Source: Rufibacter sp. LB8
GTDB lineage: Bacteria; Bacteroidota; Bacteroidia; Cytophagales; Hymenobacteraceae
Reading direction: 5' to 3'
Assembly (NCBI RefSeq): GCF_014876185.1
Contig: NZ_JADALJ010000001.1
Coordinates: 3,639,501 to 3,703,500 of the forward strand
DNA: 64,000 nt
A program made the position numbers and the translations under genes. Below, piece after piece: positions 341 to 63,152 of this stretch (positions are counted from its first letter, which is position 1; each line of letters starts with the position of its first letter). A model generated the notes under the pieces. It was not told where the DNA came from. It saw nothing but the letters and a program-made list of their open reading frames with translations, and ran no database searches.

Positions 341-381
341 ACGTTTTCGGCTTCATTTCCAGAAATGACCCCGAAAACGGT
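341..381. repeat. Intergenic palindrome, copy 1
   Basis: Member of the 40-bp palindrome family, with CGTTTTCGG at left and CCGAAAACG at right around TTTCCAGAAA. The arms carry two mismatches. It lies 18 bases upstream of the pafA-like start. Confidence 0.85.
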
Positions 382-399
382 TATCAGAAATTCATAAAC

Positions 400-2067
400 A
401 TGGGAAAACAGTCCATACGCTTTTGGTTCTTGCTTTTGCTGGCGCTTTGCACGAGCACCTCGGTGTTCGCGCAGAAGAAAAAGAAGAAGAACGCGGCCCC
501 AGATAAACCGAAGCTAGTGATTGGGATTGTGGTGGACCAGATGCGCTATGATTACCTCTACCGCTACTGGGGCAAGTACTCTAACAACGGGTTCAAGCGG
601 TTAATCAACGAAGGCTTCAACTTTCGGAACAACCATTACAATTACGTTCCTACTTATACAGGTCCGGGCCATGCGTCTATCTACACTGGCACCACGCCCG
701 CCATACACGGTATTGTGGGCAATGACTGGTACAACCGTGCCACCGGCCGCAACATCTATTGTTCTGAGGATAAGTCCGTGAAAACCGTGGGCAGTACCTC
801 CAAAGCCGGGGAAATGTCGCCGGTGAACATGTTGAGTACTACCATCACAGATGAACTCAAACTAGCCACCAACCAGAAAAGCAAAGTCATTGGCCTGAGC
901 TTGAAAGACAGAGGTTCTATTCTTCCGGCGGGGCATTCGGCGAATGCGGCATATTGGTATGACGGCGCCAACGGCGCCATGATCACCAGCACCTATTACA
1001 TGCAGGAACTTCCGGCGTGGGTACAGGCGTTCAACGCCCGCAGGCTGCCTGAACAGTATACCAGCCAACCCTGGAACACGCTGTTGCCCATAGACCAATA
1101 CACGCAGAGCACCGCAGATGACCAACGCCACGAAGGTGTTTTTTCGGGCGAAGCCAAGCCTATTTTTCCGCACAACATTCCCGCCTACCGCGGCAAGACG
1201 TTTGACATTCTCAGATCCATTCCCGCCGGAAACACCTATACCAAGGATTTCGCCATTGAGGCCATTAAAGCCGAGAGCCTGGGCAAAGGCGAAGTCACCG
1301 ATTTTCTGGCCGTCAGTTTCTCAACGCCAGATTATGTGGGGCACCAGTTCGGGCCGAACGCCATTGAGGTGGAAGACCTATATTTGCGCCTTGATTTGGA
1401 ATTGGCTGATTTTCTGAAATTTTTGGATGGTCATTTAGGCAAACAGAACGTATTGATATTCCTGACCGCTGACCACGGCGCCGCGCAAAATCCGCAGTAC
1501 ATGAAAAGCCTGCGCATTCCGGCCGGCAATTCCAACAATGCGGTCATGACAGATTCGCTCAAAAAGCACCTGAACAGCAAGTTTGGGACGGCAGACTGGG
1601 TGAGCAGTTTCATGAACCAGCAGGTGTACCTGAACCACGCGGTGGTGGAAAGTAAGAAGGCCAACCTCACCGAAATACAGGAAGAGGTAGCAAGGTTCAT
1701 GCAACGGTTCCCGGGCGTGTTGCGGTCTTTCACCGCAGATGCCTTGATGAAGTCGCACTGGACGCGCGGCTTGGGCATGCTGATGGAGAATGGTTATATG
1801 CCGTACCGGTCAGGAGACGTGTTAGTGGCGTTTCAGCCGGGCTGGTATGAGAACTGGGGCCGAACCGAGGCCAAAGGCACTACGCACGGCAGTTCGTGGA
1901 CCTATGACACGCACATACCGCTGCTGTGGTACGGCTGGCAGATTCCGGCGGGCGAGTCAACGGTAAGAACAGAGATTATAGACATAGCGCCCAGTTTGGC
2001 GGCGTGGCTGCGCATTCAGGAGCCCAACGGAACCATCGGGCGCGCCTTGTTAGAACACATGCGGTAA
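400..2067 (+). CDS. PafA-type alkaline phosphatase, exported
   Basis: Predicted periplasmic phosphomonoesterase of the alkaline phosphatase superfamily, close to the Ca-independent PafA enzymes of Bacteroidota that release phosphate from organic phosphates. Residues 1-25 are a signal peptide (hydrophobic LLLLAL core, cleavage near FAQ), followed by a Lys-rich stretch. The catalytic set is visible: Asp46 in VVDQMRYDY, nucleophile Thr87 in TYTGPGHAS, the KDRG substrate clamp, the metal-binding TPDYVGHQFGP, TADHGA, and the late THGSSW histidine. At 555 residues it is the usual length for the family. A pyrophosphatase gene starts 39 bases downstream on the same strand, so both may serve phosphate recovery. 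A close relative with nucleotide pyrophosphatase/phosphodiesterase activity cannot be excluded. Confidence 0.88.
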   Translation: MGKQSIRFWFLLLLALCTSTSVFAQKKKKKNAAPDKPKLVIGIVVDQMRYDYLYRYWGKYSNNGFKRLINEGFNFRNNHYNYVPTYTGPGHASIYTGTTPAIHGIVGNDWYNRATGRNIYCSEDKSVKTVGSTSKAGEMSPVNMLSTTITDELKLATNQKSKVIGLSLKDRGSILPAGHSANAAYWYDGANGAMITSTYYMQELPAWVQAFNARRLPEQYTSQPWNTLLPIDQYTQSTADDQRHEGVFSGEAKPIFPHNIPAYRGKTFDILRSIPAGNTYTKDFAIEAIKAESLGKGEVTDFLAVSFSTPDYVGHQFGPNAIEVEDLYLRLDLELADFLKFLDGHLGKQNVLIFLTADHGAAQNPQYMKSLRIPAGNSNNAVMTDSLKKHLNSKFGTADWVSSFMNQQVYLNHAVVESKKANLTEIQEEVARFMQRFPGVLRSFTADALMKSHWTRGLGMLMENGYMPYRSGDVLVAFQPGWYENWGRTEAKGTTHGSSWTYDTHIPLLWYGWQIPAGESTVRTEIIDIAPSLAAWLRIQEPNGTIGRALLEHMR

Positions 2068-2106
2068 AATATAAACCGCTTAAAAGTAGAATAGAGAAAA
2101 GTAGAT

Positions 2107-2670
2107 ATGTTAGAAACAACAAAAAAGAGTGCCTTCAACCCCTGGCACGATGTAGAGTACGGCGACAACGCCCCCGCCGTGGTAACCGGTATCATTGAGA
2201 TTCCCAAAGGCTCCAAAGCCAAATATGAGTTAGACAAAGACAGCGGCATGCTGAAACTGGACCGCGTGTTGTTTTCGGCGGTGCATTACCCGGCCAACTA
2301 CGGGTTCATTCCGCAGACCTATTGTGATGACAAAGATCCCCTGGATATTCTGGTGCTTTGCTCTATTGACGTGGCGCCCATGTGCCTGATTGATGCCAAA
2401 GTGATTGGCGTGATGCAGATGATTGACAACAACGAAGAAGATGACAAGATCATCGCCGTGGCGGCCAATGATATGTCTGTGAAACACTTCAATGACATCT
2501 CTGAGTTACCCCCGCACACCTTGCTGGAGATTCAGCGTTTCTTTGAGGACTACAAGAAACTGGAGAACAAGGAAGTGATTGTAGAGAATTTCCTGGGCCG
2601 CGAAGATGCCTACAAGATCATCCAGCAGAGCATTGAGCTCTACAACACCACGTTCAGAGAGAACAACTAA
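2107..2670 (+). CDS. ppa: Inorganic pyrophosphatase, family I
   Basis: Soluble Mg-dependent enzyme that hydrolyses pyrophosphate to two phosphates, pulling biosynthetic reactions forward. The family I signature is present: [14 protein letters not shown] near the N-terminus, [24 protein letters not shown] with the metal-binding Asp residues, and the DDKI segment. The length of 187 residues fits bacterial family I enzymes. The gene follows the PafA-like phosphatase after 39 bases and is closed by a strong terminator at 2687-2728, suggesting a two-gene transcript. Identity is very likely. Confidence 0.95.
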
Positions 2671-2686
2671 GCAAAAAAGCTTTTAA

Positions 2687-2728
2687 GTAAAGCGCTGCTT
2701 TCCAAAAAAGGAGAGCAGCGCTTTTTTA
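2687..2728 (+). terminator. Intrinsic terminator after ppa
   Basis: The stem AAAGCGCTGCT pairs with AGCAGCGCTTT and runs into TTTTTT, 20 bases after the stop codon. Confidence 0.9.
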
Positions 2729-2744
2729 TTTCAGACGAAATGCA

Positions 2745-2790
2745 AATCCGTTTTTGGGCTCAATTCTGGAAATGAGACCGAAAACGGATT
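2745..2790. repeat. Intergenic palindrome, copy 2
   Basis: Arms begin AATCCG and end CGGATT, so pairing extends about 3 bp beyond the family core. It lies 16 bases after the ppa terminator. Confidence 0.85.
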
Positions 2791-2938
2791 CAAGTTTTAT
2801 CCGCTCCATTCACTTTTGAATTCTATTTCCTCTACGCCTTTCGTCCCGCTTTGAAGGCCCGGGATGATCTACACCTGCTGAAGTTTCTTTTTGCAGAAAG
2901 TCACGGAAGTAAATCCACGCCATAGTGTGCGCGTTTCT

Positions 2939-3070
2939 GATTTTGTAGGGGCTTATGGCATACGCCCTGACGCATACCAAATAAGGCATTGTGTATTTGT
3001 TCCTTCCAAGGAAGATAGAGAAATAACAAGTCCACGGCATTTGGCGAAGGCAATTCGCCCCTGCAAAATC
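2939..3070. repeat. 132-bp MITE-like element
   Basis: Terminal inverted repeats GATTTTGTAGGGGC (2939-2952) and GCCCCTGCAAAATC (3057-3070) differ at one base. There is no ORF that looks real inside. The layout resembles a miniature inverted-repeat element, but no cognate transposase is in the window and no clear target duplication was seen. Confidence 0.55.
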
Positions 3071-3123
3071 AACCAAGCGGTATCATCCTGGGCCTGTAAA
3101 GGGAGACGAAAGGCGGGAATCAT

Positions 3124-3172
3124 GTTTCCGTTTTTGGCTTCGTTTCCAGAAATGAGCCCGAAAACGGGAAAC
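3124..3172. repeat. Intergenic palindrome, copy 3
   Basis: Arms GTTTCCG and CGGGAAAC pair with a one-base bulge outside the core; the core has TTTTTGGCTTC opposite GAGCCCGAAAA. It lies within the long gap before the UbiA-like gene. Confidence 0.85.
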
Positions 3173-3341
3173 TGGATTCGGTCCCAGACGAGAAATGTAC
3201 CCAAGAACCCGGAGGCGCTTTGAAAAAGAAGCAAAAGCCTCTGCTCCAAACAGGCAAATAAAACCGCGTGCGCGTGGCACCTTTCAGGTTAGAACGCGTA
3301 CATTGCCTTGCCACCAGCCACCCACCCCAACCGCAGGAACC

Positions 3342-4190
3342 ATGAGGGTCGCCCTTAACTTTCTGGACGCAATTCTGTTCAGCAACTTCTTTATCTCTGT
3401 CTGTGCCGTGGCGCTGGCCTGGGAAACCTACCTGCTCAAAGACATGCCCATTTCGCTGCGGCTGGGCGGCATCATTTTCTTCGCGACGCTTTTCATTTAC
3501 AACGTAGACAGCCTGCTGCCTTACAAGTTCAACCAAGATGTGCCCGCCACGCCGCGTATTGCCTGGGTGCAGCGCAACCGTTTGGTGCTCATTACGCTCT
3601 GCCTCATAAGCGTGCTATGCACGCTGTATCTGTACTATACAGCCCTTTTTGAACTCAATTTCTGGTTTCTGCTGCATTTGGTGGTGGTGGCCGGGCTTTA
3701 CTCCATACCTGTAGTGCCGGAGCGCGAACGGTTTATCCCGCTCCGCGATATTCCGCTGCTCAAGGTGTTTCTCATTGCCTACGTCTGGACCGCGGTGACC
3801 GTGCAATTACCCCAGATGGAAGCCGGCAGCAACATCTTTTCGGCAGACAGCATGGTGCTGTTTGCGCGGAGGTTTCTGTTCATCTTCGCGCTCACGCTCA
3901 CCTTTGACATACGGGACCTCTACAAAGACAAACTCACCGGCACGCTCACCTTTCCCGGCAAATGGGGCGTGCCCACCACCAAGTACCTGGCCCTGCTGGC
4001 CTTGTTGCTGTATGCCATCTTACTACCCGGAAGCGTGGACACCAACGTACGCCTTGCTTTGGGGCTGGCCGCCTTGTCGGCGGGGCTGGTTATCTGGTTT
4101 GCCCATGAATATCGGTCGCGCTACTACTTTTTGATTCTCGCCGATGGCATGATGCTCTTGCAGTTTCTGCTGGTTTGGTGGCTGGCTTAG
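3342..4190 (+). CDS. UbiA-like membrane prenyltransferase family protein
   Basis: An integral membrane protein of 282 residues with about eight hydrophobic helices. Two polar clusters sit where UbiA enzymes carry their Asp-rich, Mg-prenyl-diphosphate-binding motifs: NVDSLLPYKFNQD near residue 62 and TFDIRDLYKDKLTG near residue 193. This suggests a UbiA-superfamily member, but the motifs are weaker than in MenA or UbiA and the substrate is unknown. The ATG at 3342 is chosen because the longer frame (from 3195) begins inside repeat DNA with a basic tail lacking any domain. The gene stands alone; a palindrome follows 4 bases after the stop. Confidence 0.65.
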   Translation: MRVALNFLDAILFSNFFISVCAVALAWETYLLKDMPISLRLGGIIFFATLFIYNVDSLLPYKFNQDVPATPRIAWVQRNRLVLITLCLISVLCTLYLYYTALFELNFWFLLHLVVVAGLYSIPVVPERERFIPLRDIPLLKVFLIAYVWTAVTVQLPQMEAGSNIFSADSMVLFARRFLFIFALTLTFDIRDLYKDKLTGTLTFPGKWGVPTTKYLALLALLLYAILLPGSVDTNVRLALGLAALSAGLVIWFAHEYRSRYYFLILADGMMLLQFLLVWWLA

Positions 4191-4193: not shown

Positions 4194-4241
4194 TTTTCCG
4201 TTTTCGGGCTCATTTCCAGAAATGAGGGCAAAAACGGAAAA
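4194..4241. repeat. Intergenic palindrome, copy 4
   Basis: TTTTCCG and CGGAAAA outer arms; the inner right arm has decayed (GAGGGCAAAAA). It lies 3 bases after the UbiA-like stop and 8 bases from the nnr gene stop, between convergent genes. Confidence 0.85.
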
Positions 4242-6696: not shown

Positions 6697-6740
6697 TTCC
6701 GTTTTGGGGCTCATTTCTGGAAATGAGCCCCAAAACGGAA
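6697..6740. repeat. Intergenic palindrome, copy 5
   Basis: GGGG/CCCC subtype, TTCCGTTTTGGGGCTC opposite its complement, with a TG centre. It lies 13 bases after the stop of the upstream PAP2 gene, between two same-strand paralogues. Confidence 0.9.
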
Positions 6741-7806: not shown

Positions 7807-7866
7807 GGACTAACCTCCGTTTTGGGGCTCATTTCCAGAAATGAGCCCCAAAATGGAGGTTAGTCC
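7807..7866. repeat. Intergenic palindrome, copy 6 (29-bp arms)
   Basis: The longest-armed copy. The arms pair over 29 bp with one mismatch; the outer arm GGACTAACCTCC duplicates, in inverse, the last codons and stop of the adjacent minus-strand gene, which ends at 7860. Confidence 0.92.
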
Positions 7867-10635: not shown

Positions 10636-10679
10636 TTCCGTTTTCGGGCTCATTTCTGGAAACGGGGCTGAAAACGGAA
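10636..10679. repeat. Intergenic palindrome, copy 7
   Basis: TTCCG/CGGAA outer pairs and a TG centre; the inner right arm is partly decayed (AACGGGGCTG). It lies 16 bases after the stop of the NHL gene. Confidence 0.85.
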
Positions 10680-13964: not shown

Positions 13965-13973
13965 TGGAAAAGC

Positions 13974-14011
13974 CGTTTTGGGGCTCATTTCCAGGAACGA
14001 GCCCCAAAACG
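13974..14011. repeat. Intergenic palindrome, copy 8
   Basis: GGGG/CCCC subtype, CGTTTTGGGGCTC opposite its complement with one centre mismatch. It lies 9 bases after the M50 stop. Confidence 0.88.
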
Positions 14012-14087
14012 CAGGTCATAATCCACGGTAAATACTTTATATTACAATGAACATATTTAGTATAGAATAAGTAGCAGCCATCAGCCT

Positions 14088-15093: not shown

Positions 15094-15145
15094 AAATTCC
15101 CGTTTTAGGGCTCATTTCCAGAAATGAAGCCGAAAACGGGAATTT
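15094..15145. repeat. Intergenic palindrome, copy 9
   Basis: Pairing extends to AAATTCCCG/CGGGAATTT, about 4 bp past the core. It sits midway between two convergent genes (stops at 15067 and 15173). Confidence 0.88.
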
Positions 15146-16358: not shown

Positions 16359-16368
16359 GGCGCGCGTG

Positions 16369-16405
16369 GTTTAGGGCTTGTTTGGGAAATAGAGGCCAAA
16401 AACGG
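16369..16405. repeat. Decayed intergenic palindrome, copy 10
   Basis: Only outer parts (TTTAGGGCTTGTTT and GAGGCCAAAAACG) resemble the family; pairing is poor. It lies just upstream of the crp-like start. Confidence 0.5.
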
Positions 16406-17490: not shown

Positions 17491-17540
17491 AACTCCCGTT
17501 TTCGGGCTCATTTTCAAAAATGAGCCCGAAAACGGGAGTT
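17491..17540. repeat. Intergenic palindrome, copy 11 (perfect 24-bp arms)
   Basis: A perfect copy. The left arm starts AACTCCCGTTTTCGGG, the centre is CA at 17515-17516, and the right arm is an exact reverse complement. It lies 24 bases after the sdaA stop. Confidence 0.95.
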
Positions 17541-17590
17541 GGCATAGACACTCGTAGGAACTGCGCACGCTACGAGGTCATTTGAGCAGC
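17541..17590. repeat. CTCGTAG hairpin repeat (family D), reverse copy
   Basis: It contains CTCGTAGGAACTGCGCACGC followed by TACGAGGTCATTTGAGCAGC. The same element, in forward orientation, is at 50536-50582 and 60095-60142. Confidence 0.8.
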
Positions 17591-17653
17591 AGCAGTAGGA
17601 ACTTCCACCAGAAACAAGGCACTACCTTGTCTCTACATTTGCAAAGGTAATCC

Positions 17654-17692
17654 CAGTTTTCCTTCCATTTCCAGAATAGAGCCCGAAAACAG
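17654..17692. repeat. Decayed intergenic palindrome, copy 12
   Basis: CAGTTTTCCTTCCATTTC opposite GAATAGAGCCCGAAAACAG; the right arm is well kept and the left degraded. It lies 19 bases from the next minus-strand gene stop. Confidence 0.6.
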
Positions 17693-20690: not shown

Positions 20691-21833
20691 ATGAAGAATT
20701 TCTTTTGGTGGTGCGCCGGCGCCGATGACCATATTCTGGCCCAATGCCCCAAGTCTGAGCACGTCAAGTTCGGCGGCATTGGGGCAACCGTGCTGTTCAC
20801 CGGCGTGCTGGCCGCGCTTTCTGGTGGCTACGCGCTGTACACGGTGTTTGACTCCGTGGCGGCGGCCGTGGCCTTCGGGTTGCTGTGGGGCGCCGTGATT
20901 TTCAACCTGGACCGCTTCATTGTCTCCACCATCAGAAAAGAAGGCAAGTTCGGTCGTGAGTTCCTCCAGATTTTGCCGCGCCTGTTGCTGGCCTTGGTGC
21001 TGGCCATTGTGATCTCCAAACCGCTGGAGCTGCGTATTTTCCAGAAAGAGATTGACAGCGTCCTGGTGGAGAAAAAAGCCCAACTGGCCCTGGAGCACCA
21101 AAAATTGGTGAACAAACAATTCACAGAGTCAGACTCGGTGCGGAAAGACATTGACCGCATAAAAGCCGAGATTGCCTCCAAATCTGCCCAGCGTGACACC
21201 CTGTACGCCCAAATGAGCGCCGAATCTGATGGTACCGGCGGCACTAAGAAAATCGGACGCGGTCCCATTTTTGAGGAGAAAAAGAGGCAGTATGATAAAG
21301 TTGACGCCGAGCTGAAGACCTTGAACGAGCAGAACACGCTCTTGATAGCCGAACGCCAGAAACGCATTGACACCCTCACCACGCAGCGCGACAAAACCTT
21401 GGCCCAAGGCAAAGCCCGCTTTGATGACTACGGCGGACTCATGGCCCGCATGGAGGCCTTGGATAAACTGCCGTGGCTGCCCAGCTTCTTCATCATGCTT
21501 TTGTTCATCTGCTTAGAAACCGCACCCATCTTCACCAAACTTATTTCCAAGCGTGGGCCTTATGATGATTTGCTGCGCGATGTAGAAACCACCACTGAAC
21601 TGGAGAGCCTGGAGAAACTGGAAGTCCGCCGCCGTGAATATGACACCCGCAAAGCCATTGACACCGCCGGCCAGGAAGCCCGCATTGAGCATTACAGCCA
21701 AAACCGCCGCGAAACCGTGAAAGCAGATGCTGACACTGACCTGGAACTGGCCCGCACCAATTCCTACGCCCGCCTCAAAACCGGCAAAGAGAAAATCCGC
21801 CGCGAGACAGAAAGCTATATGGATTCGTTTTAA
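20691..21833 (+). CDS. DUF4407 membrane protein
   Basis: A 380-residue protein of the DUF4407 family. Four predicted transmembrane helices (two near residues 25-75, one near 95-115 and one near 260-285) frame a long Lys/Glu/Gln-rich coiled coil (about 120-240) predicted to lie outside the inner membrane. A soluble, charged C-terminal tail follows. The ATG at 20691 (MKNFFWWCAGADDHILAQCP) fits the family N-terminus better than the upstream start at 20652. The family has no established role; associations with envelope or vesicle functions are not proven. The stretch downstream is repeat-rich. Confidence 0.8.
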   Translation: MKNFFWWCAGADDHILAQCPKSEHVKFGGIGATVLFTGVLAALSGGYALYTVFDSVAAAVAFGLLWGAVIFNLDRFIVSTIRKEGKFGREFLQILPRLLLALVLAIVISKPLELRIFQKEIDSVLVEKKAQLALEHQKLVNKQFTESDSVRKDIDRIKAEIASKSAQRDTLYAQMSAESDGTGGTKKIGRGPIFEEKKRQYDKVDAELKTLNEQNTLLIAERQKRIDTLTTQRDKTLAQGKARFDDYGGLMARMEALDKLPWLPSFFIMLLFICLETAPIFTKLISKRGPYDDLLRDVETTTELESLEKLEVRRREYDTRKAIDTAGQEARIEHYSQNRRETVKADADTDLELARTNSYARLKTGKEKIRRETESYMDSF

Positions 21834-21845
21834 TCCTTCCTATTT

Positions 21846-21876
21846 GTCATCCTGAAAGGATCTTGTGGGTGAGCTG
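21846..21876. repeat. GTCATCCTG repeat (family F), single arm
   Basis: The sequence GTCATCCTGAAAGGATCTTG with a GTGGGTGAGC tail. A paired version is at 26204-26297 and a variant at 59431-59457. Confidence 0.7.
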
Positions 21877-21897
21877 GAAAAGCTTGAGCTAAAAATG

Positions 21898-21953
21898 AAA
21901 AATCCCTGTTTTCGGCTTCATTTTCAGAAATGAGCCCGAAAACAGGGATTTTT
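21898..21953. repeat. Intergenic palindrome, copy 13 (terminator-like)
   Basis: The arms extend into AAAAATCCCTG and CAGGGATTTTTT, which gives an A-tract, stem, T-tract layout of a two-way intrinsic terminator. It lies 64 bases after the DUF4407 stop. Confidence 0.9.
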
Positions 21954-21972
21954 TATGCAGTATTCCTGATTC

Positions 21973-22000
21973 GTAGGGACAGGTCAAGACTTGTCCCTAC
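21973..22000. repeat. GTAGGGACA hairpin (family I variant)
   Basis: GTAGGGACA (21973-21981) pairs with TGTCCCTAC (21992-22000) around a 10-base loop. Confidence 0.6.
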
Positions 22001-22008
22001 CGTAACTG

Positions 22009-22208
22009 CCGCAAGTTTAGCACAGCGTAACTTGTGGCGGCTCACGCAGCAAGTTTATCAACTTGCGTATTTGAAAATCAACTTTAGGAAAACTCTCAGT
22101 TTATAGCGCACCTAACTGCAAAAATGGTGTATGGAATGAATAACGTGTACGCAAGTTGATAAACTTGCTGCGTGCAAAACCACAAGTTACGCTGCGCTAA
22201 ACTTGCGG
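22009..22208. repeat. 200-bp nested inverted repeat (family E)
   Basis: The outer arm CCGCAAGTTTAGCACAGCG plus TAACTTGTGG (22009-22037) pairs with 22180-22208 with one mismatch. A second pair, CGCAGCAAGTTTATCAACTT plus GCGTA (22045-22069), pairs perfectly with 22148-22172. Another copy is at 59916-60032. Confidence 0.8.
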
Positions 22209-22241
22209 TAGATAGAAGTTGAAAGGTGTAGAGAGAATCCA

Positions 22242-22285
22242 TTCCGTTTTTGGGCTCATTTCCAGAAATGAGCCCGAAAACGGGA
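22242..22285. repeat. Intergenic palindrome, copy 14
   Basis: TTCCGTTTTTGGGCTC opposite GAGCCCGAAAACGGGA. Its last base abuts the minus-strand stop codon at 22286-22288. Confidence 0.88.
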
Positions 22286-23161
22286 TTACTGGCGGGTGAT
22301 GCGTTCTGGGTGGTTGGTGATGACGCCGTCGGCGCCTAGTTCAAAGAGGCGTTTGATGTTGGCGGGTTTGTCTTCGGTCCAGATAAAAGTTTTGAAGCCT
22401 TGACTGTGCAGCGCTTTGATGAATGCCTTAGACGCGAAGGACCTGTGCACGTTGATGGCGGCTGCCTTGGAGTAGCGGTCAAAGCCTCCAAATTTGAGTT
22501 CGTGGTCAATGAAGATGGGCAGGAACGGAATTTTACCTACAATCAGTTTGTGCGTGGGAATGACAAAATCTGCCGCCCAAATGCGCTCCAGAATGGGATC
22601 ATGGAACGACTGCAGCACGCACCAGTCGTTGGCCTTGTACTGGCTTATAAGTTGCAGCGTGCTGGCTTCCAGGCCCAGGTAGTAATCGTCTTTGCCTTTT
22701 TTGAGCTCAATGAGGAGTTTTTTCTTGCCCTTGACCAGGTTAAGAACCTGCGCCAGGGTAGGAATGCGCTCGCCCGCAAAGGAAGAGTCAAAGGAAATGC
22801 CCGCGTCCAGTTTCTTGATTTCAGCTAAGGTGAGGTCTGCAATGGCACCGGTGCCGTTGGTGGTGCGGTCTACGGTGGCGTCATGAATGACCACCACTTC
22901 GCCGTCTTTGGTCTGGTGCAGGTCAATCTCAATAAAATCTGCCGAGGTTTCCAGGGCTTTGCGCACGGCGGCCAACGTGTTCTCCGGCGCCAGGCCAGAG
23001 GCCCCGCGATGGGCCACCACGGCTACCTTGCGCTTCTGGTTTTTGAGTACCAGTCCTTTCTCCATACCATCAGATCCGTCGCAGGCCACCAGCCAGAAGG
23101 CAAAAAAAGGCAGAAAAGCCCACCAAAGCGTTTTTTTCACCAAAAAAGAATTGTCTGTCAT
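22286..23161 (-). CDS. Glycerophosphodiester phosphodiesterase, lipoprotein-like
   Basis: Hydrolyses glycerophosphodiesters to glycerol-3-phosphate and an alcohol. A 291-residue protein with an N-terminal hydrophobic segment and Cys at WLVAC (residues 22-26), suggesting a lipoprotein. Catalytic motifs: VAHRGASGLAPENTLAAVRKA, EIDLHQTKDGEVVVIHDATVDRTTNGTG and the later LLIELKKGK. It is the UgpQ/GlpQ type. A promoter may lie between it and the Lrp/AsnC gene, which ends 88 bases upstream of the start on the same strand. A palindrome abuts the stop codon. Confidence 0.9.
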   Translation of the reverse strand: MTDNSFLVKKTLWWAFLPFFAFWLVACDGSDGMEKGLVLKNQKRKVAVVAHRGASGLAPENTLAAVRKALETSADFIEIDLHQTKDGEVVVIHDATVDRTTNGTGAIADLTLAEIKKLDAGISFDSSFAGERIPTLAQVLNLVKGKKKLLIELKKGKDDYYLGLEASTLQLISQYKANDWCVLQSFHDPILERIWAADFVIPTHKLIVGKIPFLPIFIDHELKFGGFDRYSKAAAINVHRSFASKAFIKALHSQGFKTFIWTEDKPANIKRLFELGADGVITNHPERITRQ

Positions 23162-23713: not shown

Positions 23714-24231
23714 TTTTAGCGTGGTTTTTTGTCAATTCAACAACAAAAATAAGAACTTATTATGTAACTGCTAAGGTACAAAAAAATACTTTATGAAAAT
23801 TACAAGTAAATAAATAATATTTTATGGTTGTTGTAAGTAAAAACGTTAATTATTGACATATTTGTAAAAAAAATTGCTAACCTCACTAATTTTCTGTTCT
23901 GTGTTGAGAAATTTGCATCAGTTTCAGGTAAAAAGTCCCACAATTTCAGTGGAAACTTGAGGAAACAGATATTTTTGGGAAAGCCCATTTTTTTTGGAAG
24001 CAGTAAACCCAAGGCAGCAGTCAGTAGCAGTGGCAAGACCAGTTCCGGAAGTTGCCTTCAAAGGGATTGCTGCAAGTACTTGTCCGCTTTTCAGAATTAA
24101 TAACCGTTTTCGGCTCCATTTACAGAATTGAGGTCAAAAACGCTTTTTATTTAACAAGATACCGCCCGATATTGGGGCCTTCATTGGTAGTTCCTCGTTT
24201 TTGGGTGGTCTGCCAGTTTCACGCCATTTTT
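23714..24231. other. AT-rich divergent control region between regulator and serA fusion
   Basis: About 390 bases at the left are strongly A+T-rich with poly-A and poly-T runs; a palindrome copy lies at 24105-24142. Open frames here lack protein features. It probably holds both promoters and the regulator's sites, but I could not identify operators with confidence. Confidence 0.5.
24105..24142. repeat. Intergenic palindrome, copy 15 (decayed)
   Basis: CGTTTTCGGCTCCATTTAC opposite GAATTGAGGTCAAAAACG. The frame opening at 24052 reads through it, supporting the later ATG at 24232. Confidence 0.7.
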
Positions 24232-26311: not shown

Positions 26312-26359
26312 ATTCCTGTTTTGGGGCTCATTTCCAGAAACGAGCCCCAAAACAGGAAT
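26312..26359. repeat. Intergenic palindrome, copy 16
   Basis: GGGG/CCCC subtype with ATTCCTG/CAGGAAT outer pairs and one mismatch near the centre. It lies 51 bases before the serC-like start. Confidence 0.9.
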
Positions 26360-27480: not shown

Positions 27481-27633
27481 GCGCTAGTGAAGCGGTAGAT
27501 AGAAATATCTATATATGTAGAAGGTATAGCAAGCCTCTGGAAATTAATAAATTATTGAGCCGATTGGCTATCTAGTTGAAATCAGGGCCGTATAAGGAGA
27601 GAAGTTCACCAAGGCTTTTACGCTTATACCACT

Positions 27634-27837
27634 ATGAAGAAATTAGTACTTAGCTTGTTACTGTCGGGGTTTGTACTGGCAGGCGGGCCAGCGGCTATGG
27701 CCATGGAAAGCACCGCTGCGGCGGCCGAGAAAGAGTTTCCGCTCTTCGGGAAAAAGAAAAAAGGCAAGAAGGCCAAGGCGTCCAAGTCTAAATCGCATAA
27801 GAAGCAATACCTGAACCGCGGAAAGCGCGTACGCTAG
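27634..27837 (+). CDS. Small exported Lys-rich protein A
   Basis: A 67-residue protein with a signal peptide (VLSLLLSGFVLAGGPAAMA, cleavage near AMA) and a short mature part: EFPLFGKKKKGKKAKASKSK and then HKKQYLNRGKRVR. The mature tail is roughly 40 percent Lys/Arg. Its layout (signal, short linker, xLFGK, Lys-rich tail) is shared with the gene at 28525. No known family is recognised. An arm of a decayed palindrome overlaps the stop codon and a hairpin terminator follows at 27911. Confidence 0.7.
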   Translation: MKKLVLSLLLSGFVLAGGPAAMAMESTAAAAEKEFPLFGKKKKGKKAKASKSKSHKKQYLNRGKRVR

Positions 27838-27873
27838 TTTTGCCCCCATTTACAAAATAGAGCCCGAAAACGG
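27837..27873. repeat. Decayed intergenic palindrome, copy 17
   Basis: Left arm GTTTTGCCCCCATTTAC, right arm GAGCCCGAAAACGG; the left is degraded. It overlaps the last base of the stop codon at 27835-27837. Confidence 0.6.
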
Positions 27874-27910
27874 CTTATCCTATCTCAAGGCTACCTATTG
27901 TAATAGAGAT

Positions 27911-27941
27911 GCCCACTTGCAAAAGTGGGCGTCTTGTTTTT
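27911..27941 (+). terminator. Intrinsic terminator after small Lys-rich protein A
   Basis: GCCCACTT pairs with AAGTGGGC around a GCAA loop, then GTCTTGTTTTT. It lies 73 bases after the stop. Confidence 0.8.
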
Positions 27942-28451
27942 ACGGCCTTTGCAGCTTGATTATATCTATCTCTTGTGCCGCAACCAGGGTTCGCAAAAAT
28001 CTGACTTCACCGTATTCTCCCGGTTTTCACCTCCGTGGTCAGCCTCTACCTGCGCTCAAACCTACCTAGGCGGCATTTATTGATGATTATGCCAACTTCT
28101 GACAGTATTACAATTCAGTCAGAGATTAATACACTTGATAAATATTTTAGAAATTTTTAAGAAAAAATATCCATAATTAGAGTTGGCCCGTATAATTGTA
28201 GTATGATTTCCATATGTTTTATAAGTCTTATGACGGACATATGAAATTTATTAAAAAAATCGTTTAATTTTAGGGGTAGAAAGAAAGCAGAAGGAGATGG
28301 AGTTTAGTAGTGAAGTTGAACCACATTTGGGAGATTTGCGAAACTTGCTATAATTCCAAGAAAAAATATTGCCTGTAAAAGAGAATGAAAACGCCATTTA
28401 AACGAAACTGAGCCACTTTTTAGTTATTAAAAATATTTATTATATTTTTTA

Positions 28452-28483
28452 TTTGAATTGTTAAAAGATAACTACTAAGTTTA
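28452..28483 (+). promoter_or_regulatory. Promoter-like site upstream of small Lys-rich protein B
   Basis: TTTG at 28452-28455, then a 20-base spacer, then TAAGTTTA at 28476-28483. This is one base off the Bacteroidota -7 box TAnnTTTG. It lies about 41 bases upstream of the ATG at 28525. Confidence 0.4.
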
Positions 28484-28524
28484 GGTCAATAATCAGATTT
28501 ACTATAACAAAATCCATAACAGCC

Positions 28525-28722: not shown

Positions 28723-28793
28723 CCTTCTGTACAGGCCTTAAAGACAAACAACAACGTGTGTCTGTAACCAGCGTGCAGATACATCTATAGACT

Positions 28794-30273: not shown

Positions 30274-30313
30274 CTGTTTTCGGCCTCATTTCTGGAAATG
30301 GAGCCGAAAACGG
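30274..30313. repeat. Intergenic palindrome, copy 18
   Basis: CTGTTTTCGGCCTCATTTC opposite GAAATGGAGCCGAAAACGGG, with a one-base slip. It lies 55 bases upstream of the chosen lutB start. Confidence 0.85.
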
Positions 30314-30450: not shown

Positions 30451-30490
30451 CCGTTTTTGGGCTCATTTCTGGAAATGAAGCCGAAAACAA
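30451..30490. repeat. Intergenic palindrome, copy 19
   Basis: CCGTTTTTGGGCTCATTTC opposite GAAATGAAGCCGAAAACA. It lies among repeats between the 30598 gene stop and family G. Confidence 0.82.
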
Positions 30491-32657: not shown

Positions 32658-32698
32658 GCGGTTTTTGGGCTCATTTCTGGAAACGAAGCCAAAAACGC
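32658..32698. repeat. Intergenic palindrome, copy 20
   Basis: GCGGTTTTTGGGCTCATTTC opposite GAAACGAAGCCAAAAACGC, with one extra G on the left. It is 8 bases from the ispF stop. Confidence 0.85.
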
Positions 32699-33231: not shown

Positions 33232-33277
33232 TTTCTGTTTTCGGCTTCGTTTCCAGAAATGAGCCCGAAAACGGAAA
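33232..33277. repeat. Intergenic palindrome, copy 21
   Basis: TTTCTGTTTTCGGCTTCG opposite GAGCCCGAAAACGGAAA; outer TTTC/GAAA is paired. It is 39 bases upstream of the ispF start. Confidence 0.85.
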
Positions 33278-33450: not shown

Positions 33451-33500
33451 ATTTCCTGTTTTCGGGCTCGTTTTCAGAATTGAAGCCGAAAACAGGAAAT
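33451..33500. repeat. Intergenic palindrome, copy 22
   Basis: Outer ATTTCCTG/CAGGAAAT is perfectly paired. It is 1 base from the M16 stop triplet at 33502-33504. Confidence 0.9.
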
Positions 33501-35087: not shown

Positions 35088-35153
35088 GACGAAGTTCTAG
35101 CTGGAAAACCAATTAACAATCAACAATCAGCAACCAACAATCAACAATTCTCC

Positions 35154-35192
35154 ACTTTTGCCTTCATTTGAGAAAAAGAGCCAGAAAACGGA
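35154..35192. repeat. Decayed intergenic palindrome, copy 23
   Basis: ACTTTTGCCTTCATTTG opposite AGAGCCAGAAAACGG. Only part of the family pattern remains. Confidence 0.5.
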
Positions 35193-37280: not shown

Positions 37281-37328
37281 ATTCCCGTTTTCGGGCTCAT
37301 TTTTGGAAATGAGCCCGAAAACGGGAAT
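37281..37328. repeat. Intergenic palindrome, copy 24 (terminator-like)
   Basis: ATTCCCG/CGGGAAT outer pairs, followed by TTTTTT at 37327-37332. It lies 29 bases after the E1 stop and can serve as its terminator. Confidence 0.9.
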
Positions 37329-37392
37329 TTTTTGCGCTATATAGAAAATGTACCAATTAATCTGGGTATTTTTGTAAAGCAACGTTGGCGCT

Positions 37393-37428
37393 GGTTTTGG
37401 GGTCATTTCAGAAACAGAGCCCCAAAAC
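37393..37428. repeat. Intergenic palindrome, copy 25 (decayed)
   Basis: GGTTTTGGGGTCATTTC opposite GAAACAGAGCCCCAAAAC; the GGGG subtype with two mismatches. It lies 52 bases before the small lipoprotein gene. Confidence 0.72.
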
Positions 37429-37479
37429 GCCCTGCTTTTTACCCGAATTATGTGGGAAACCGTATAAAAGTTGTTGAGC

Positions 37480-50313: not shown

Positions 50314-50314
50314 C

Positions 50315-50352
50315 CGTTTTCGGCCTCATTTTCAGAAATGAAGCCAAAAACG
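50315..50352. repeat. Intergenic palindrome, copy 26
   Basis: CGTTTTCGGCCTCATTTTC opposite GAAATGAAGCCAAAAACG. It begins 2 bases after the T9SS operon terminator. Confidence 0.8.
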
Positions 50353-50535
50353 CATTTCAGAAACCTAGCGTCGATATTCTGTAACAACGTGTCTCCATGC
50401 AACGGCGGCGTCTCTTGATGCAATAACCTAATTCCGGGACATCAACTTGCTTAGAACGGTTTCTGGCAGGAGAGCCTTGACTTGCTGCGTAGCCCCACGT
50501 CGTGTCAGTGACACAACGCTACAGACAATACCGCT

Positions 50536-50651: not shown

Positions 50652-50696
50652 TTCCCATTTTCGGGCTCGTTCCGGAAATGAGCCCGAAAACGGGAA
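50652..50696. repeat. Intergenic palindrome, copy 27
   Basis: TTCCCATTTTCGGGCTCG opposite GAGCCCGAAAACGGGAA, with a shortened, self-complementary TCCGGA centre. Its right edge runs into the gcvP terminator. Confidence 0.88.
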
Positions 50697-53664: not shown

Positions 53665-53807
53665 TAATTATGGGAATTAACGGGTAGAACAGGTCTTTAT
53701 CCTTGGTTAACAAGCGTTAGCTTCAAATGATTTAACAAAAGTACAGGTTAAAATTTACTAAAGTATGGTTGGGACCTGTAAATTGCGGCCCAGGATTTTG
53801 TTGAACC

Positions 53808-53845
53808 CGTTTTGGGGCTCATTTCTGAAAATGAGCCCCAAAACG
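53808..53845. repeat. Intergenic palindrome, copy 28
   Basis: GGGG/CCCC subtype, CGTTTTGGGGCTCATTTC opposite GAAAATGAGCCCCAAAACG. It lies 25 bases upstream of the dehydrogenase start. Confidence 0.88.
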
Positions 53846-53870
53846 CCCCATCATTGAGAGAGAATTACCC

Positions 53871-55199: not shown

Positions 55200-55245
55200 T
55201 TTCCGTTTTAGGGCTCAATTCTGGAAATGAAGCCCAAAACGGAAA
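55200..55245. repeat. Intergenic palindrome, copy 29
   Basis: TTTCCGTTTTAGGGCTC opposite GAAGCCCAAAACGGAAA. It sits between the terminators of two convergent genes. Confidence 0.85.
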
Positions 55246-55682: not shown

Positions 55683-55727
55683 TCCCCGTTTTCGGCCCCG
55701 TTTCCAGAAATGAGCCCGAAAACGGAA
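55683..55727. repeat. Intergenic palindrome, copy 30
   Basis: TCCCCGTTTTCGGCCCC opposite GAGCCCGAAAACGGAAA. It is 3 bases from the next minus-strand stop. Confidence 0.85.
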
Positions 55728-57468: not shown

Positions 57469-57516
57469 AAAGCTGTTTTCGGCTTCGTTTCTGGAAACAA
57501 AGGCAAAAACAGCTTT
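57469..57516. repeat. Intergenic palindrome, copy 31
   Basis: AAAGCTG/CAGCTTT outer pairs replace the usual CCG/CGG, yet remain complementary; the inner right arm is decayed. It is 40 bases from the SIMPL gene stop. Confidence 0.85.
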
Positions 57517-59847: not shown

Positions 59848-59886
59848 GCGTTTTTGGGCTCTAAATTGGAAATGGAGGCGAAAACA
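59848..59886. repeat. Intergenic palindrome, copy 32 (decayed)
   Basis: GCGTTTTTGGGCTC opposite GGAGGCGAAAAC; the centre is altered. It lies inside the repeat cluster. Confidence 0.65.
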
Positions 59887-59915
59887 CAAGTATCATTTCC
59901 TAATAAATATCACTG

Positions 59916-60142: not shown

Positions 60143-60146
60143 ATTT

Positions 60147-60187
60147 GCGTTTTCTCTTCCATTTCCAGTTTAGAGCCCGGAAACGGA
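60147..60187. repeat. Decayed intergenic palindrome, copy 33
   Basis: GCGTTTTCTCTTCCATTTC opposite TTAGAGCCCGGAAACGG. It lies at the end of the repeat cluster. Confidence 0.6.
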
Positions 60188-60494: not shown

Positions 60495-60517
60495 ACCTTG
60501 CATTAACTCAAAACAAC

Positions 60518-61159
60518 ATGGCATATTCATCTTCCAACGGACCAGCCCGCCTGACGCCGTTACATGACCTCAAAGATTTTAAAGTAGCTGACCGCAACCT
60601 GGACGTTAGAAACTGGGAAGTAATAGGCGCCGACGGCCAACGCCTGGGAAAAGTAGACGACCTCATTGTAGACCGTGAACTCATGAAAGTGCGCTACCTG
60701 GACATTGACGTGGACAAAGACCGGTTTCTCCCAGACACAGACGCCCGTCACCTGCTGGTACCCATTGGGGCCGCGCACCTAGACGATGACAACAACCAGG
60801 TGTTCCTGGCCAACATTGACCAGAATGCCCTCACGCGCTTTCCGTTTTACCGCGGCGGCGCCGTAGATTCTGATTTGGAATACCGCGTCATGCACGCCTT
60901 TACCAAACCCAATGACGCCTACATGGCCCCGGCGGCCACCGCTGCCCCAACCGCAGATTTCTACCAGAACGACCACTTCAATGAAGAACGCTTCTACCAG
61001 AAAAACCAAAACAGCGGCATGATGAATGCTGGCGGCGTGAGCGGCGGCGGCGTGCAAGACGATATTGCCACCATTGAACGGCTTAAGCAGATGCTGGACC
61101 AGGGCACCATTACCCAAGAGGAGTTCGCGGTGCTCAAGAGAAAGGCCATCGGGTTCTAG
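60518..61159 (+). CDS. PRC-barrel protein with C-terminal SHOCT-like segment
   Basis: A 213-residue cytosolic protein: N-terminal PRC-barrel (about 25-115: NWEVIGADGQRLGKVDDLIV, DRELMKVRYLDIDVDKDRF), a Gly/Ala-rich linker (about 150-180) and a SHOCT-like end (about 185-213: IERLKQMLDQGTITQEEF). PRC-barrels are found in photosynthetic reaction centres, ribosome maturation and general stress proteins; this one is probably a stress-linked protein. The gene is followed at once by a palindrome fused to a terminator. Confidence 0.82.
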   Translation: MAYSSSNGPARLTPLHDLKDFKVADRNLDVRNWEVIGADGQRLGKVDDLIVDRELMKVRYLDIDVDKDRFLPDTDARHLLVPIGAAHLDDDNNQVFLANIDQNALTRFPFYRGGAVDSDLEYRVMHAFTKPNDAYMAPAATAAPTADFYQNDHFNEERFYQKNQNSGMMNAGGVSGGGVQDDIATIERLKQMLDQGTITQEEFAVLKRKAIGF

Positions 61160-61193
61160 TTTTGGCGTCATTTACAGAAATGAGCCCAAAAAC
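61160..61193. repeat. Intergenic palindrome, copy 34 (fused to a terminator)
   Basis: TTTTGGCGTCATTTAC opposite GAAATGAGCCCAAAAAC. It starts right after the stop codon at 61157-61159; its right edge is also the left arm of the following terminator. Confidence 0.75.
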
Positions 61194-61229
61194 AGAAGAG
61201 CAAGCCAATCTGGCTTGCTCTTCTGTTTT
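61189..61229. terminator. Terminator sharing an arm with palindrome copy 34
   Basis: AAAACAGAAGAGCAAGCCA pairs perfectly (19 bp) with TGGCTTGCTCTTCTGTTTT around ATC. It can act on both strands, between two convergent genes. Confidence 0.85.
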
Positions 61230-61247
61230 AAATGGATTTCATAAAAA

Positions 61248-62345: not shown

Positions 62346-62358
62346 AGGGCTGGTTTGC

Positions 62359-62601
62359 TTAGCTGTCTAATCTGCCAAAAACGCTCATCTCATCATCTGT
62401 GTCATGGCGGGAATTCTGGTCGCCGTCTGTGGCCTTGCCACCTTGTCCGCCCTGGCTGTTGCCCGGCTGCTGCCCGCCCTGCTGGGCGCTGGCGTTTCCT
62501 TTGGCCTCGGCGCCCGGTTCTTCTGAGGTTTGCTTCAGGTCATCGGCAGACTGTTTGCCTTTTAGTTTTTCTTCCTCGTTGTATTTGTTGTCGGTGCTCA
62601 T
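62359..62601 (-). CDS. Small disordered Gln/Gly-rich protein
   Basis: An 80-residue hydrophilic protein without a signal peptide. It is rich in Gln, Gly, Asp, Glu and Lys (ASAQQGGQQPGNSQGGQGGK), predicted to be disordered, with a possible stress or desiccation-related role by analogy only. It shares a transcript with the MBL-fold gene. Confidence comes from its short spacing and codon-compatible composition. Confidence 0.6.
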   Translation of the reverse strand: MSTDNKYNEEEKLKGKQSADDLKQTSEEPGAEAKGNASAQQGGQQPGNSQGGQGGKATDGDQNSRHDTDDEMSVFGRLDS

Positions 62602-62853
62602 ATAGGTAAATGGTTAGGTAGAAGATAAGTATGAACCGGCTGGGCGGTTTTTGTGTGTACGAAGAAGGGGGAAAGAGGGTGTCTTGGGTCGTAAAAAATC
62701 TGGGGTGCCGTTGCACTTCTCAAAAAAGTTGTCTATACTAGTCCACACGTAGCCAGAAAGCCCTTTCAGTTCTTGGCGAGATTTTTGCACTACCGGAGAG
62801 AGGTGACTGAAGGGCCGCCGGAATTTTTCTCAACCGCTTATCGTTTATAAGAC

Positions 62854-63114
62854 ATGGTAAATCTGATTTTTCCTCCCAGCTATATGAGCGTGTATGCCAA
62901 GTGCATTGATGCTACTTTGCCTAGCTTTGAACCCGACGAATGGATTGAAGAAGGCCACGTGTACACCGTGAAACATTTCACTGAACCCTTGAACCTGGAA
63001 GAGGGCATGGCCCTGACCATTATTGACGAAGAAGGCGAAGAGATTCACCCCTCGCCGTCGCACTGGAGTTTTTCTTCCAGCCGGTTTGAGCTGTTCTCCA
63101 TTTTCCTGAACTAA
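62854..63114 (+). CDS. Conserved hypothetical protein
   Basis: An 86-residue small soluble protein (CIDATLPSFEPDEWIEEGHV, YTVKHFTEPLNLEEGMALTI, HPSPSHWSFSSSRFELFSIF). It may start at the ATG at 62854 or 62884. The acidic beta-rich sequence looks like a small family of Bacteroidota genomes, function unknown to me. A palindrome overlaps the end region. Confidence 0.65.
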   Translation: MVNLIFPPSYMSVYAKCIDATLPSFEPDEWIEEGHVYTVKHFTEPLNLEEGMALTIIDEEGEEIHPSPSHWSFSSSRFELFSIFLN

Positions 63115-63152
63115 GCGTTTTCCTGCTCATTTTCAGAAATGAGCCCTAAAAC
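63115..63152. repeat. Intergenic palindrome, copy 35 (fused to a terminator)
   Basis: GCGTTTTCCTGCTCATTTTC opposite GAAATGAGCCCTAAAACAG. It begins right after the stop codon at 63112-63114 and its right arm doubles as the terminator's left arm. Confidence 0.8.

What the first reader, a model, noticed from the sequence alone, without database searches (positions are those of the whole stretch)
341..63152. About 35 copies of one 40-bp palindrome between genes in 64 kb
A near-perfect palindrome (left arm close to CCGTTTTCGGGCTCATTTC, centre CA or TG, then the reverse complement) appears about once every 1.8 kb. I counted 35 copies, some decayed, and found none well inside a gene; edges touch stop codons or last codons at a few sites. 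None lies inside the 41-50 kb T9SS operon. The density exceeds what I would expect of classical REP elements. No RAYT-type transposase is in the window. I do not recognise this palindrome from a described family.
Basis: partly seen in the sequence, partly recalled or inferred. Interest (0 to 1): 0.85.

Follow-up and report, generated by a model that had tools for sequence, protein, structure and literature searches.

The report
Ancient palindromes marking bacterial gene ends
About two thousand copies of one 40-base mirror-symmetric DNA word sit mostly near the ends of genes in this Rufibacter-type bacterium; related species keep a copy in largely the same gaps but spell it their own way, which suggests a maintained DNA landmark rather than a jumping element, though what reads it is unknown.

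Summary
In detail: 35 copies in the window, about 2,160 estimated for the chromosome, 2 in 60 kb of a second contig. All 16 genomes of the genus carry the family; 11 Pontibacter loci have none.

It does not behave as a mobile REP. Across 12 species, 24 of 31 comparable gaps hold a copy or relic in all species, in all but one or two, or in none. Between two species 80% identical, 57 of 58 mapped sites clearly correspond; one is doubtful. There is no target duplication, and one genome rich in copies has no RAYT-domain match.

The 40 bp evolve far more slowly than their flanks. Half-sites are rigidly paired (174 of 175), and the arms vary largely independently in the best-sampled genomes. In gaps of 45-130 bp, occupancy is 30 of 40 convergent, 31 of 125 tandem, 0 of 10 divergent. 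I read it as an ancestral burst that became a maintained two-fold DNA site at gene ends, probably protein-bound; protein and function are inferred.

The parts
341..380 (.). palindrome copy 36/40, tandem gap
2748..2787 (.). palindrome copy 37/40, tandem gap; gap 671 bp against 168-182 bp in six relatives; 2 of 7 species at threshold
3128..3167 (.). palindrome copy 36/40, same gap
4198..4237 (.). palindrome copy 37/40 in a 59-bp convergent gap; element or relic in 7 of 7 species compared
6699..6738 (.). palindrome copy 38/40, tandem gap
7817..7856 (.). palindrome copy 37/40 with 10-bp complementary flanks
10638..10677 (.). palindrome copy 36/40, tandem gap
13973..14012 (.). palindrome copy 35/40, tandem gap
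15100..15139 (.). palindrome copy 37/40, convergent gap
16366..16405 (.). decayed copy 27/40 in a divergent gap; element or relic in 10 of 10 species compared
17496..17535 (.). palindrome copy 38/40, convergent gap (9 of 10 species), left end of a mosaic with a second repeat family
17653..17692 (.). asymmetric copy 29/40, right end of the mosaic
21906..21945 (.). palindrome copy 35/40, convergent gap (6 of 6 species at threshold, though none of five relatives by the strict search), complementary flanks
22244..22283 (.). palindrome copy 39/40, same gap
24104..24143 (.). copy 31/40, divergent gap; 10 of 12 species
26316..26355 (.). copy 35/40, tandem gap; 12 of 12 species
27834..27873 (.). asymmetric copy 29/40 overlapping a stop codon; gap occupied in 4 of 12 species
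30274..30313 (.). copy 35/40, tandem gap; 12 of 12 species
30451..30490 (.). copy 35/40, same gap
32659..32698 (.). copy 33/40, tandem gap; 10 of 12 species
33235..33274 (.). copy 36/40, tandem gap; 11 of 11 species
33456..33495 (.). copy 33/40, same gap
35152..35191 (.). decayed copy 29/40, divergent gap; 12 of 12 species
37285..37324 (.). copy 39/40, tandem gap; 12 of 12 species
37391..37430 (.). copy 30/40, same gap
50314..50353 (.). copy 34/40 directly after an intrinsic terminator, convergent gap; 12 of 12 species
50654..50693 (.). copy 30/40, same convergent gap, next to further terminators
53807..53846 (.). copy 36/40 shortly before a start codon in a divergent gap; 9 of 12 species at threshold
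55203..55242 (.). copy 35/40, convergent gap; 4 of 12 species (G000, G007, G021, G008)
55686..55725 (.). copy 37/40, tandem gap; 4 of 12 species (G000, G007, G021, G004)
57473..57512 (.). copy 29/40, tandem gap; 11 of 12 species
59848..59887 (.). decayed copy 27/40; gap occupied in 10 of 10 species
60147..60186 (.). decayed copy 29/40, same gap
61156..61195 (.). copy 31/40 overlapping a stop codon, followed by a bidirectional terminator; 11 of 12 species
63115..63154 (.). copy 34/40 directly after a stop codon, its right end running into a terminator; 11 of 12 species

Best explanation
Most copies were laid down in the common ancestor of Rufibacter, probably by a copying process that is now silent in the lineages examined (the shared site map is shown for this region; the original process is inferred). 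Since then the copies have stayed where they are and behave as a two-fold-symmetric DNA site: two rigidly spaced 20-bp half-sites, each conforming to the species' own motif, kept near the ends of genes and above all between convergent genes. The most likely mechanism, inferred and not shown, is that a dimeric or tetrameric DNA-binding protein whose specificity drifts between species occupies the sites in both directions as a transcript-end or insulator mark, for example a roadblock that stops convergent RNA polymerases.
For: Position conserved: 24 of 31 gaps are occupied in all species, all but one or two, or none, with a motif learned without the species tested; G000-occupied gaps are occupied in 114 of 213 relative cells against 7 of 95 for G000-empty gaps, P = 0.0006 within gap type and length class. 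G007 versus G021: of 58 colinearly mapped copies 54 have a partner at 27/40 or better, 3 a clear diverged partner, 1 is doubtful. Constraint: element 80-86% identical in 10-bp bins, flanks 45-54%, sharp 40-bp edges. DNA rather than RNA logic: half-site offset 20 in 174 of 175 pairs, 5 lone half-sites against 367 in palindromes, 4 lone arms genome-wide by one degenerate pattern; core pairing at the shuffled level in G000 (2857 of 3705 Watson-Crick against 2869.7 +/- 18) and in G007, G021 and G005; G.U does not exceed A.C in G007 plus G021 (156 versus 160) nor in the flank pairs of 259 tandem copies (153 versus 162). 3'-end preference at gap lengths of 45-130 bp: convergent 15 of 19 versus tandem 14 of 57 in G000 (P = 6e-5), 15 of 21 versus 17 of 68 in G007 plus G021 (P = 2e-4), divergent 0 of 7 and 0 of 3. 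In 20 of 45 G000 convergent gaps the palindrome is present and no strong intrinsic terminator was found; 2 of 45 have neither.
Against: No binding protein was found. Information per half-site (26.4 bits) far exceeds the about 12 bits needed to find 2,160 sites, which fits copying better than selection for binding alone. Some conserved copies sit in divergent gaps (15 of 47 occupied in G000), one shortly before a start codon in most species. Palindromes are not anti-associated with intrinsic terminators in relatives' convergent gaps (Fisher P = 0.37). Pairing signals exist: in G000 two outer pairs covary (positions 2/39 and 8/33, z 3.4 and 3.9), mirror pairs have more mutual information than other pairs on average (0.057 versus 0.027), the first 26-copy alignment with its flanks pairs above its shuffles (82.8% versus 78.7%, 0 of 500), arms covary in the small sets G006 and G008, and flanks are complementary above expectation in all six sets, clearly (4.4-6.5 sd) in five. 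Selecting copies by match to a consensus also works against seeing covariation. In tandem gaps G.U exceeds A.C in G000 (167 versus 124, P = 0.014) and in the pooled de novo palindromes of eleven relatives (115 versus 65, P = 0.0002). G000 also prefers CA to TG at the centre in the sense strand (82 versus 50, P = 0.007); relatives do not (49 versus 53).
Confidence: 0.46

Rival explanations
1. A REP-like selfish family: an ancient burst of a non-autonomous palindrome, now immobile and without host function, whose copies look conserved because occasional gene conversion between copies homogenises them within each species.
For: Motif information far above what site-finding needs. In G000 nearly all copies share a derived core (C at position 14 in at least 184 of 195 left and 186 of 195 right half-sites, against mostly G in relatives), and within-genome identity (28.8-31.8 of 40) exceeds cross-species identity of non-orthologous copies (23.8-26.0). 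Location next to gene 3' ends is also described for tagged REPs (PMC3733652, passages seen). Mosaics with a second repeat family. A few gaps are occupied in one clade or in G000 only.
Against: In G007 versus G021 orthologous copies are more alike (33.3 of 40) than copies within G007 (29.4), so conversion is not what keeps them on that time scale, yet they are far better conserved than their flanks. Neutral copies should have decayed like the flanks. Convergent preference at equal gap length.
Confidence: 0.27
2. An RNA hairpin at the 3' end of messages (non-canonical terminator or 3' stabiliser) selected for base pairing.
For: 3'-end position; flanking bases 1-6 pair more than chance (656 Watson-Crick versus 501 permuted in 259 tandem copies); in tandem gaps G.U above A.C in G000 (167 versus 124) and in the pooled relatives (115 versus 65), in the per-species counts chiefly in the small sets G006, G011, G003, G004; core covariation in G006 and G008 and at two outer pairs in G000.
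Against: Core arms pair only at the shuffled level overall in G000, G007, G021 and G005; loop spacing is rigid; no G.U excess in G007 or G021, the two best-sampled relatives, or in the flanks (153 versus 162); no T-run follows the palindrome.
Confidence: 0.18
3. A miniature inverted-repeat element of a classical transposase (two terminal repeats back to back).
For: Two 19-20 bp arms around a 2-bp centre resemble joined transposon ends (recalled).
Against: Direct-repeat flanks near the permuted level for k = 2-8 (largest departure 2 versus 0.46 at k = 6); only 4 lone arms in the genome by one pattern; no clean insertion between G007 and G021.
Confidence: 0.06
4. DNA uptake sequences arranged as inverted pairs.
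For: High density; species-tuned motif (recalled parallel with DUS and USS).
Against: Half-sites hardly occur singly: 5 in 404 kb against 0-3 for column-permuted motifs, 3 of the 5 in genes.
Confidence: 0.02

Closest known systems
REP / BIME / REPIN with RAYT (TnpA-REP)
   Same: Short palindrome, very many copies, intergenic, near gene 3' ends and between convergent or unidirectional genes (passages of PMC3733652), can form mosaics with other repeats
   Different: Fully two-fold symmetric 40 bp, no unpaired GTAG or CGTC tag, no dependence on RAYT genes, copies in largely the same gaps across 12 species, arms varying largely independently in the best-sampled genomes
Intrinsic (Rho-independent) terminators
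   Same: Hairpin-capable, near gene ends, sometimes adjacent to or sharing bases with a real terminator
   Different: No T-run; terminators coexist as separate hairpins with their own sequences
Protein-bound transcription roadblocks (eukaryotic Reb1 or TTF-1 type; recalled)
   Same: Sequence-specific DNA site at transcript ends
   Different: I know of no such genome-wide system in bacteria (recalled; one paper search with four terms held in common gave 0 papers); no binding protein identified here
MITEs
   Same: Short inverted repeats without a gene
   Different: No target duplication, no parent element seen, no recent mobility seen

Membership tests
REP/RAYT | Short palindrome in high copy number between genes | tested here: met
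REP/RAYT | Unpaired GTAG or CGTC tag at one end (PMC3733652, passages seen) | tested here: not met
   Position-wise flank composition of 195 copies shows T-rich left and A-rich right flanks, symmetric, and no tag
REP/RAYT | RAYT gene present and tracking the repeat | tested here: not met
   G007 (one contig, 99% complete) has 0 PF01797 matches at E <= 0.001 and 78 copies in 260 kb; 14 Rufibacter genomes have 0-6 matches, 46 genomes of other genera 0-10
REP/RAYT | Recent, lineage-specific insertion sites | tested here: not met
   57 of 58 mapped sites clearly shared or relic in G007 versus G021, 1 doubtful; a few gaps are clade-limited or G000-only
Intrinsic terminator | GC-rich hairpin followed by a T-run | tested here: not met
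   T at 4%, 16%, 23%, 50%, 43%, 33% in the six bases after the palindrome; a terminator inside the palindrome scored in 0 of 40 convergent, 1 of 85 tandem and 0 of 15 divergent occupied gaps
MITE | Target-site duplication | tested here: not met
   Direct-repeat flanks near permutation level for k = 2-8 in 195 copies
MITE | Parent transposon with the same ends | tested here: inconclusive
   4 lone arms in the own genome by one degenerate pattern; relatives not searched
DNA uptake sequence | Single copies of the motif, also inside genes | tested here: not met
   5 lone half-sites (3 in genes) against 367 in palindromes in 404 kb; permuted motifs give 0-3
Protein-bound transcript-end site | A protein that binds the 40-mer | not testable with these tools
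   none
Protein-bound transcript-end site | Transcripts end at the site | not testable with these tools
   no expression data

The most novel reading that the evidence does not exclude
A bacterial chromosome-wide system of protein-bound, bidirectional transcript-end or insulator sites: about two thousand 40-bp dyads, most of them fixed in place since the genus arose, with a recogniser whose specificity has drifted so that the sites were rewritten together, in situ, in each species.
Probability: 0.27. Interest if true: 0.88.

Novelty: new variant of a known kind. Interest (0 to 1): 0.68.

Why it matters
Short intergenic palindromes are usually read as selfish REP debris or as RNA hairpins. Here the positions are largely shared across the species compared, the arms act as rigidly paired half-sites, and the set has its own spelling in each species. 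That makes two old questions testable: whether such families do work at gene ends, and how thousands of dispersed sites can change sequence together. It also supplies ready material: 16 genomes, two lineages (G009, G019) in which the sampled copies have mostly decayed in place, and a clear motif for pull-down.

Tried and rejected
Rfam gave no match at gathering thresholds. PF01797 as the mobiliser: six matches in the own genome, no link across species. Target duplications: none convincing. RNA-level test by G.U versus A.C: tandem copies of G000 167 versus 124 (P = 0.014) and pooled de novo palindromes of eleven relatives 115 versus 65 (P = 0.0002) favour RNA; the two large consensus-selected relative sets do not (G007 81 versus 88, G021 75 versus 72), nor do flank pairs; sense-strand skews outside the element are small. 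This stays unresolved. Centre orientation: biased in G000 (82 versus 50, P = 0.007), not in relatives (49 versus 53). Replacement of intrinsic terminators: no anti-association in relatives' convergent gaps (28 palindrome and terminator, 31 palindrome only, 36 terminator only, 28 neither; P = 0.37). Pontibacter tandem gaps carry more terminators (42 of 109, against 28 of 166 in G000), but these are eleven versions of one region. A promoter-motif test of tandem gaps was inconsistent (strong motif in 17 of 78 element gaps versus 5 of 46 others in G000, 2 of 41 versus 8 of 44 in G007, 4 of 39 versus 5 of 36 in G021) and its shuffles were spoiled by masked bases. Lone arms as transposon ends: 4 in the genome. 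Paper searches gave nothing relevant in their listings.

Limits and dropped rows: 20 of 78 G007 copies were not mapped (17 unmapped, 2 strand, 1 not colinear), and a partner had to score at least 27 of 40 to count as shared; of the 4 others, one search shows a clear diverged partner for 3 and a doubtful one for the copy at offset 46404. One search used only gaps with exactly one 40-base copy in both species. One search required GTTT and AAAC at fixed places, so that feature is built in there; one search did not. One search used gaps of 45 bp or more comparable in at least 6 of 12 species; its false-positive rate was measured in coding DNA only (29 of 762,255 windows), so a 1-kb gap can be credited by chance at a few per cent or somewhat more. 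In one gap (27480-28836) the copy of G008 lies elsewhere than those of G007 and G021, so same gap is not always same site. Genes were called with my own hexamer script; stop codons are exact, starts are not. Position tests rest on this one region plus 260 kb of G007 and G021.

Full report
The observation. In seventeen 20-kb samples of the same chromosome there are 160 copies at 27 or more matches in 340 kb, 6 to 14 per sample; in 60 kb of the second contig there are 2. The chromosome estimate is 2,160 +/- 171 copies. The second contig (155 kb) carries metal-handling genes in the part I looked at (six ORFs: multicopper oxidase, metal ATPase, AcrB-type transporter and others) and looks plasmid-like, which is inference.

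Which organism. Two genomes of its genus have contigs of exactly the lengths of Rufibacter psychrotolerans and Rufibacter sediminis contigs (265,673 and 404,045), so the genus is Rufibacter or its GTDB equivalent. A covariance model built from 26 of the 35 window copies hits 16 of 16 genomes of the genus and, weakly, 2 of 104 other genomes of the family; in an earlier run it hit 0 of 6 genomes of other families.

Each species has its own spelling. An unbiased search for palindromes in syntenic regions, and a second search that required GTTT and AAAC near the outer ends, show a shared frame with species-specific cores: CCGTTTTCGGGCTCATTTC here, CCGTTTTTGGCCTGTTTTC in G007, GCGTTTAGGGGCTGTTTTTC in G005 (arm consensus), and so on. 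They coexist with ordinary terminator hairpins of different sequence. G009 and G019 have only 4 such palindromes each in 60 kb, against 9-25 in the other nine relatives.

Positions are old and fixed. Gene order around the window is largely conserved in eleven relatives. Of 36 comparable gaps, 24 are occupied in G000; in those, 114 of 213 relative cells are occupied by the strict palindrome search, against 7 of 95 in G000-empty gaps (P = 0.0006 by permutation within gap type and length class). Three G000-occupied gaps were occupied in no relative by this strict search; for one of them (21833-22286) the motif search below finds a site in all 6 species compared, for another (2670-3342) in 2 of 7. 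A motif learned without the species under test sharpens the picture: of 31 gaps comparable in at least 6 species, 10 have a site in every species, 8 in none, and 13 are mixed, 6 of these missing only one or two species. In G009, G019, G004, G011 and G003, each of 36 gaps that lack a recognisable element but are occupied in at least half of the relatives still holds a best match 3.7-11.5 standard deviations above shuffles; of 33 gaps empty in all relatives, 31 score at background and 2 (one gap, in G009 and G019) do not. Eleven Pontibacter loci (242 kb) and 65 other Cytophagales loci (1.2 Mb) have 0 sites at score 25, against 36 in 88 kb of four Rufibacter loci. In the region examined, most copies therefore date from the stem of Rufibacter. 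A few are clade-limited, for example two convergent gaps occupied only in G000, G007, G021 and G008, although in one of these the copies are not all at the same place.

No recent movement. G007 and G021 are 80% identical. Over 260 kb each they hold 78 and 79 copies. Of 78 G007 copies 58 map colinearly: 54 have a partner at 27 of 40 or better, and of the other 4 three have a clear diverged partner and one a doubtful one; 20 copies could not be mapped. Flanks show no convincing target duplication.

Constraint. In the 54 pairs, ungapped identity is 0.86, 0.80, 0.81 and 0.86 in the four 10-bp bins of the element and 0.45-0.54 in the bins outside. Gapped, the element is 0.85 and the 30-bp flanks 0.66 and 0.64, against 0.45 for random DNA. 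The edge is sharp at 40 bp. Partners had to pass the match threshold, but so few failed that this matters little. Orthologous copies (33.3 of 40) are more alike than copies within G007 (29.4), so homogenisation is not what preserves them on this time scale. Over longer distances it differs: averaged over species pairs, orthologous copies (27.2) are little more alike than non-orthologous ones (26.0), with 27.75 within species; for G000 the within-genome figure is 28.8-31.8 against 23.8-26.0. At some aligned sites the G000 copy keeps locus-specific outer bases, for instance a stop codon inside the arm at 61156, while its core has the G000 spelling. I take that as in-place rewriting rather than re-insertion; whether selection or gene conversion did it is open.

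What is recognised. Half-sites carry 26.4 bits each; 367 lie in palindromes and 5 elsewhere in 404 kb, and the offset between paired half-sites is 20 in 174 of 175 cases. Overall the arms pair at the shuffled level in G000 (2857 Watson-Crick pairs of 3705, shuffled 2869.7 +/- 18), G007, G021 and G005, but above it in G006 and G008 (25 and 23 copies); in G000 two outer pairs, 2/39 and 8/33, do covary. Selecting copies by match to a consensus works against covariation, so some pairing constraint may be hidden. Outside the 40 bp, flanking bases are locus-specific yet complementary above expectation in all six sets, clearly in five; G.U and A.C are about equally frequent there (153 and 162). I read this flank complementarity as the trace of hairpin-mediated template switching (recalled mechanism, untested). 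In the core, G.U exceeds A.C in tandem copies of G000 (167 versus 124) and in pooled relatives (115 versus 65), but not in G007 or G021. On balance the pattern favours a DNA dyad over an RNA hairpin; it does not exclude the latter.

Where it sits. Gap occupancy in G000 for gaps of at least 40 bp: convergent 40 of 45, tandem 85 of 166, divergent 15 of 47. At gap lengths of 45-130 bp: convergent 15 of 19, tandem 14 of 57, divergent 0 of 7; in G007 plus G021, 15 of 21, 17 of 68 and 0 of 3 (Fisher P = 6e-5 and 2e-4 for convergent versus tandem). The median distance to the nearest stop codon is 33 bp (window) and 38 bp (sample). In 20 of 45 convergent gaps a palindrome is present without a strong terminator; 2 of 45 have neither. 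These facts motivate the transcript-end reading; no expression data are available.

Known families. Tagged REPs lie in similar places (passages of PMC3733652) but carry an unpaired tag that is missing here. RepRanger (passages of PMC12306157) lists many candidate palindromes in three Bacteroidota in the table passage I saw and does not contain the words Rufibacter or Hymenobacter in its main text. Searches for palindromic repeats with Hymenobacter (0 papers) and with Rufibacter (2 papers, unrelated by title and abstract), and further searches (listings only), showed no description; subscription papers and preprints are not covered.

Noticed in passing
window about 17541-17590; also L116, L110, L101: A second dispersed repeat (core TTGGCAGAGACACTCGTAGGAGC...CTACGAGGTCTTTTGAG) with matches in 16 of 16 Rufibacter genomes; in G000 some copies are nested between two palindromes about 157 bp apart, a BIME-like mosaic.
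   Followed up: partly
many copies; clear at window 7812-7861, 15095-15144, 21901-21950: Locus-specific complementary flanks beyond the 40-bp core, above expectation in all six sets tested; some differ between orthologues yet stay complementary (L067 about 7285 versus L070 about 7132).
   Followed up: partly
L088-L090 (G009) and L085-L087 (G019): Two lineages where the palindromes have mostly decayed in place (4 recognisable copies in 60 kb each; relics); natural losses that could point to the missing recogniser.
   Followed up: no
window 21.85-22.24 kb, 30.3-30.5 kb, 33.2-33.5 kb: Further repeats or hairpins in G000 gaps: TGTCATCCTGAAAGGATCTTG, CTCCCTTTAGGAGAGGGTTAGGGTGAGG, CGCAAGTTTAGC...GTAACTTGTGG.
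   Followed up: no
window 63090-63190 and orthologous gaps: The right end of the palindrome (AAAACAG) doubles as the upstream A-tract of a bidirectional terminator in several species.
   Followed up: no
L118 11053-14217: An AcrB-family transporter on the second contig reads as two adjacent ORFs; described only.
   Followed up: no
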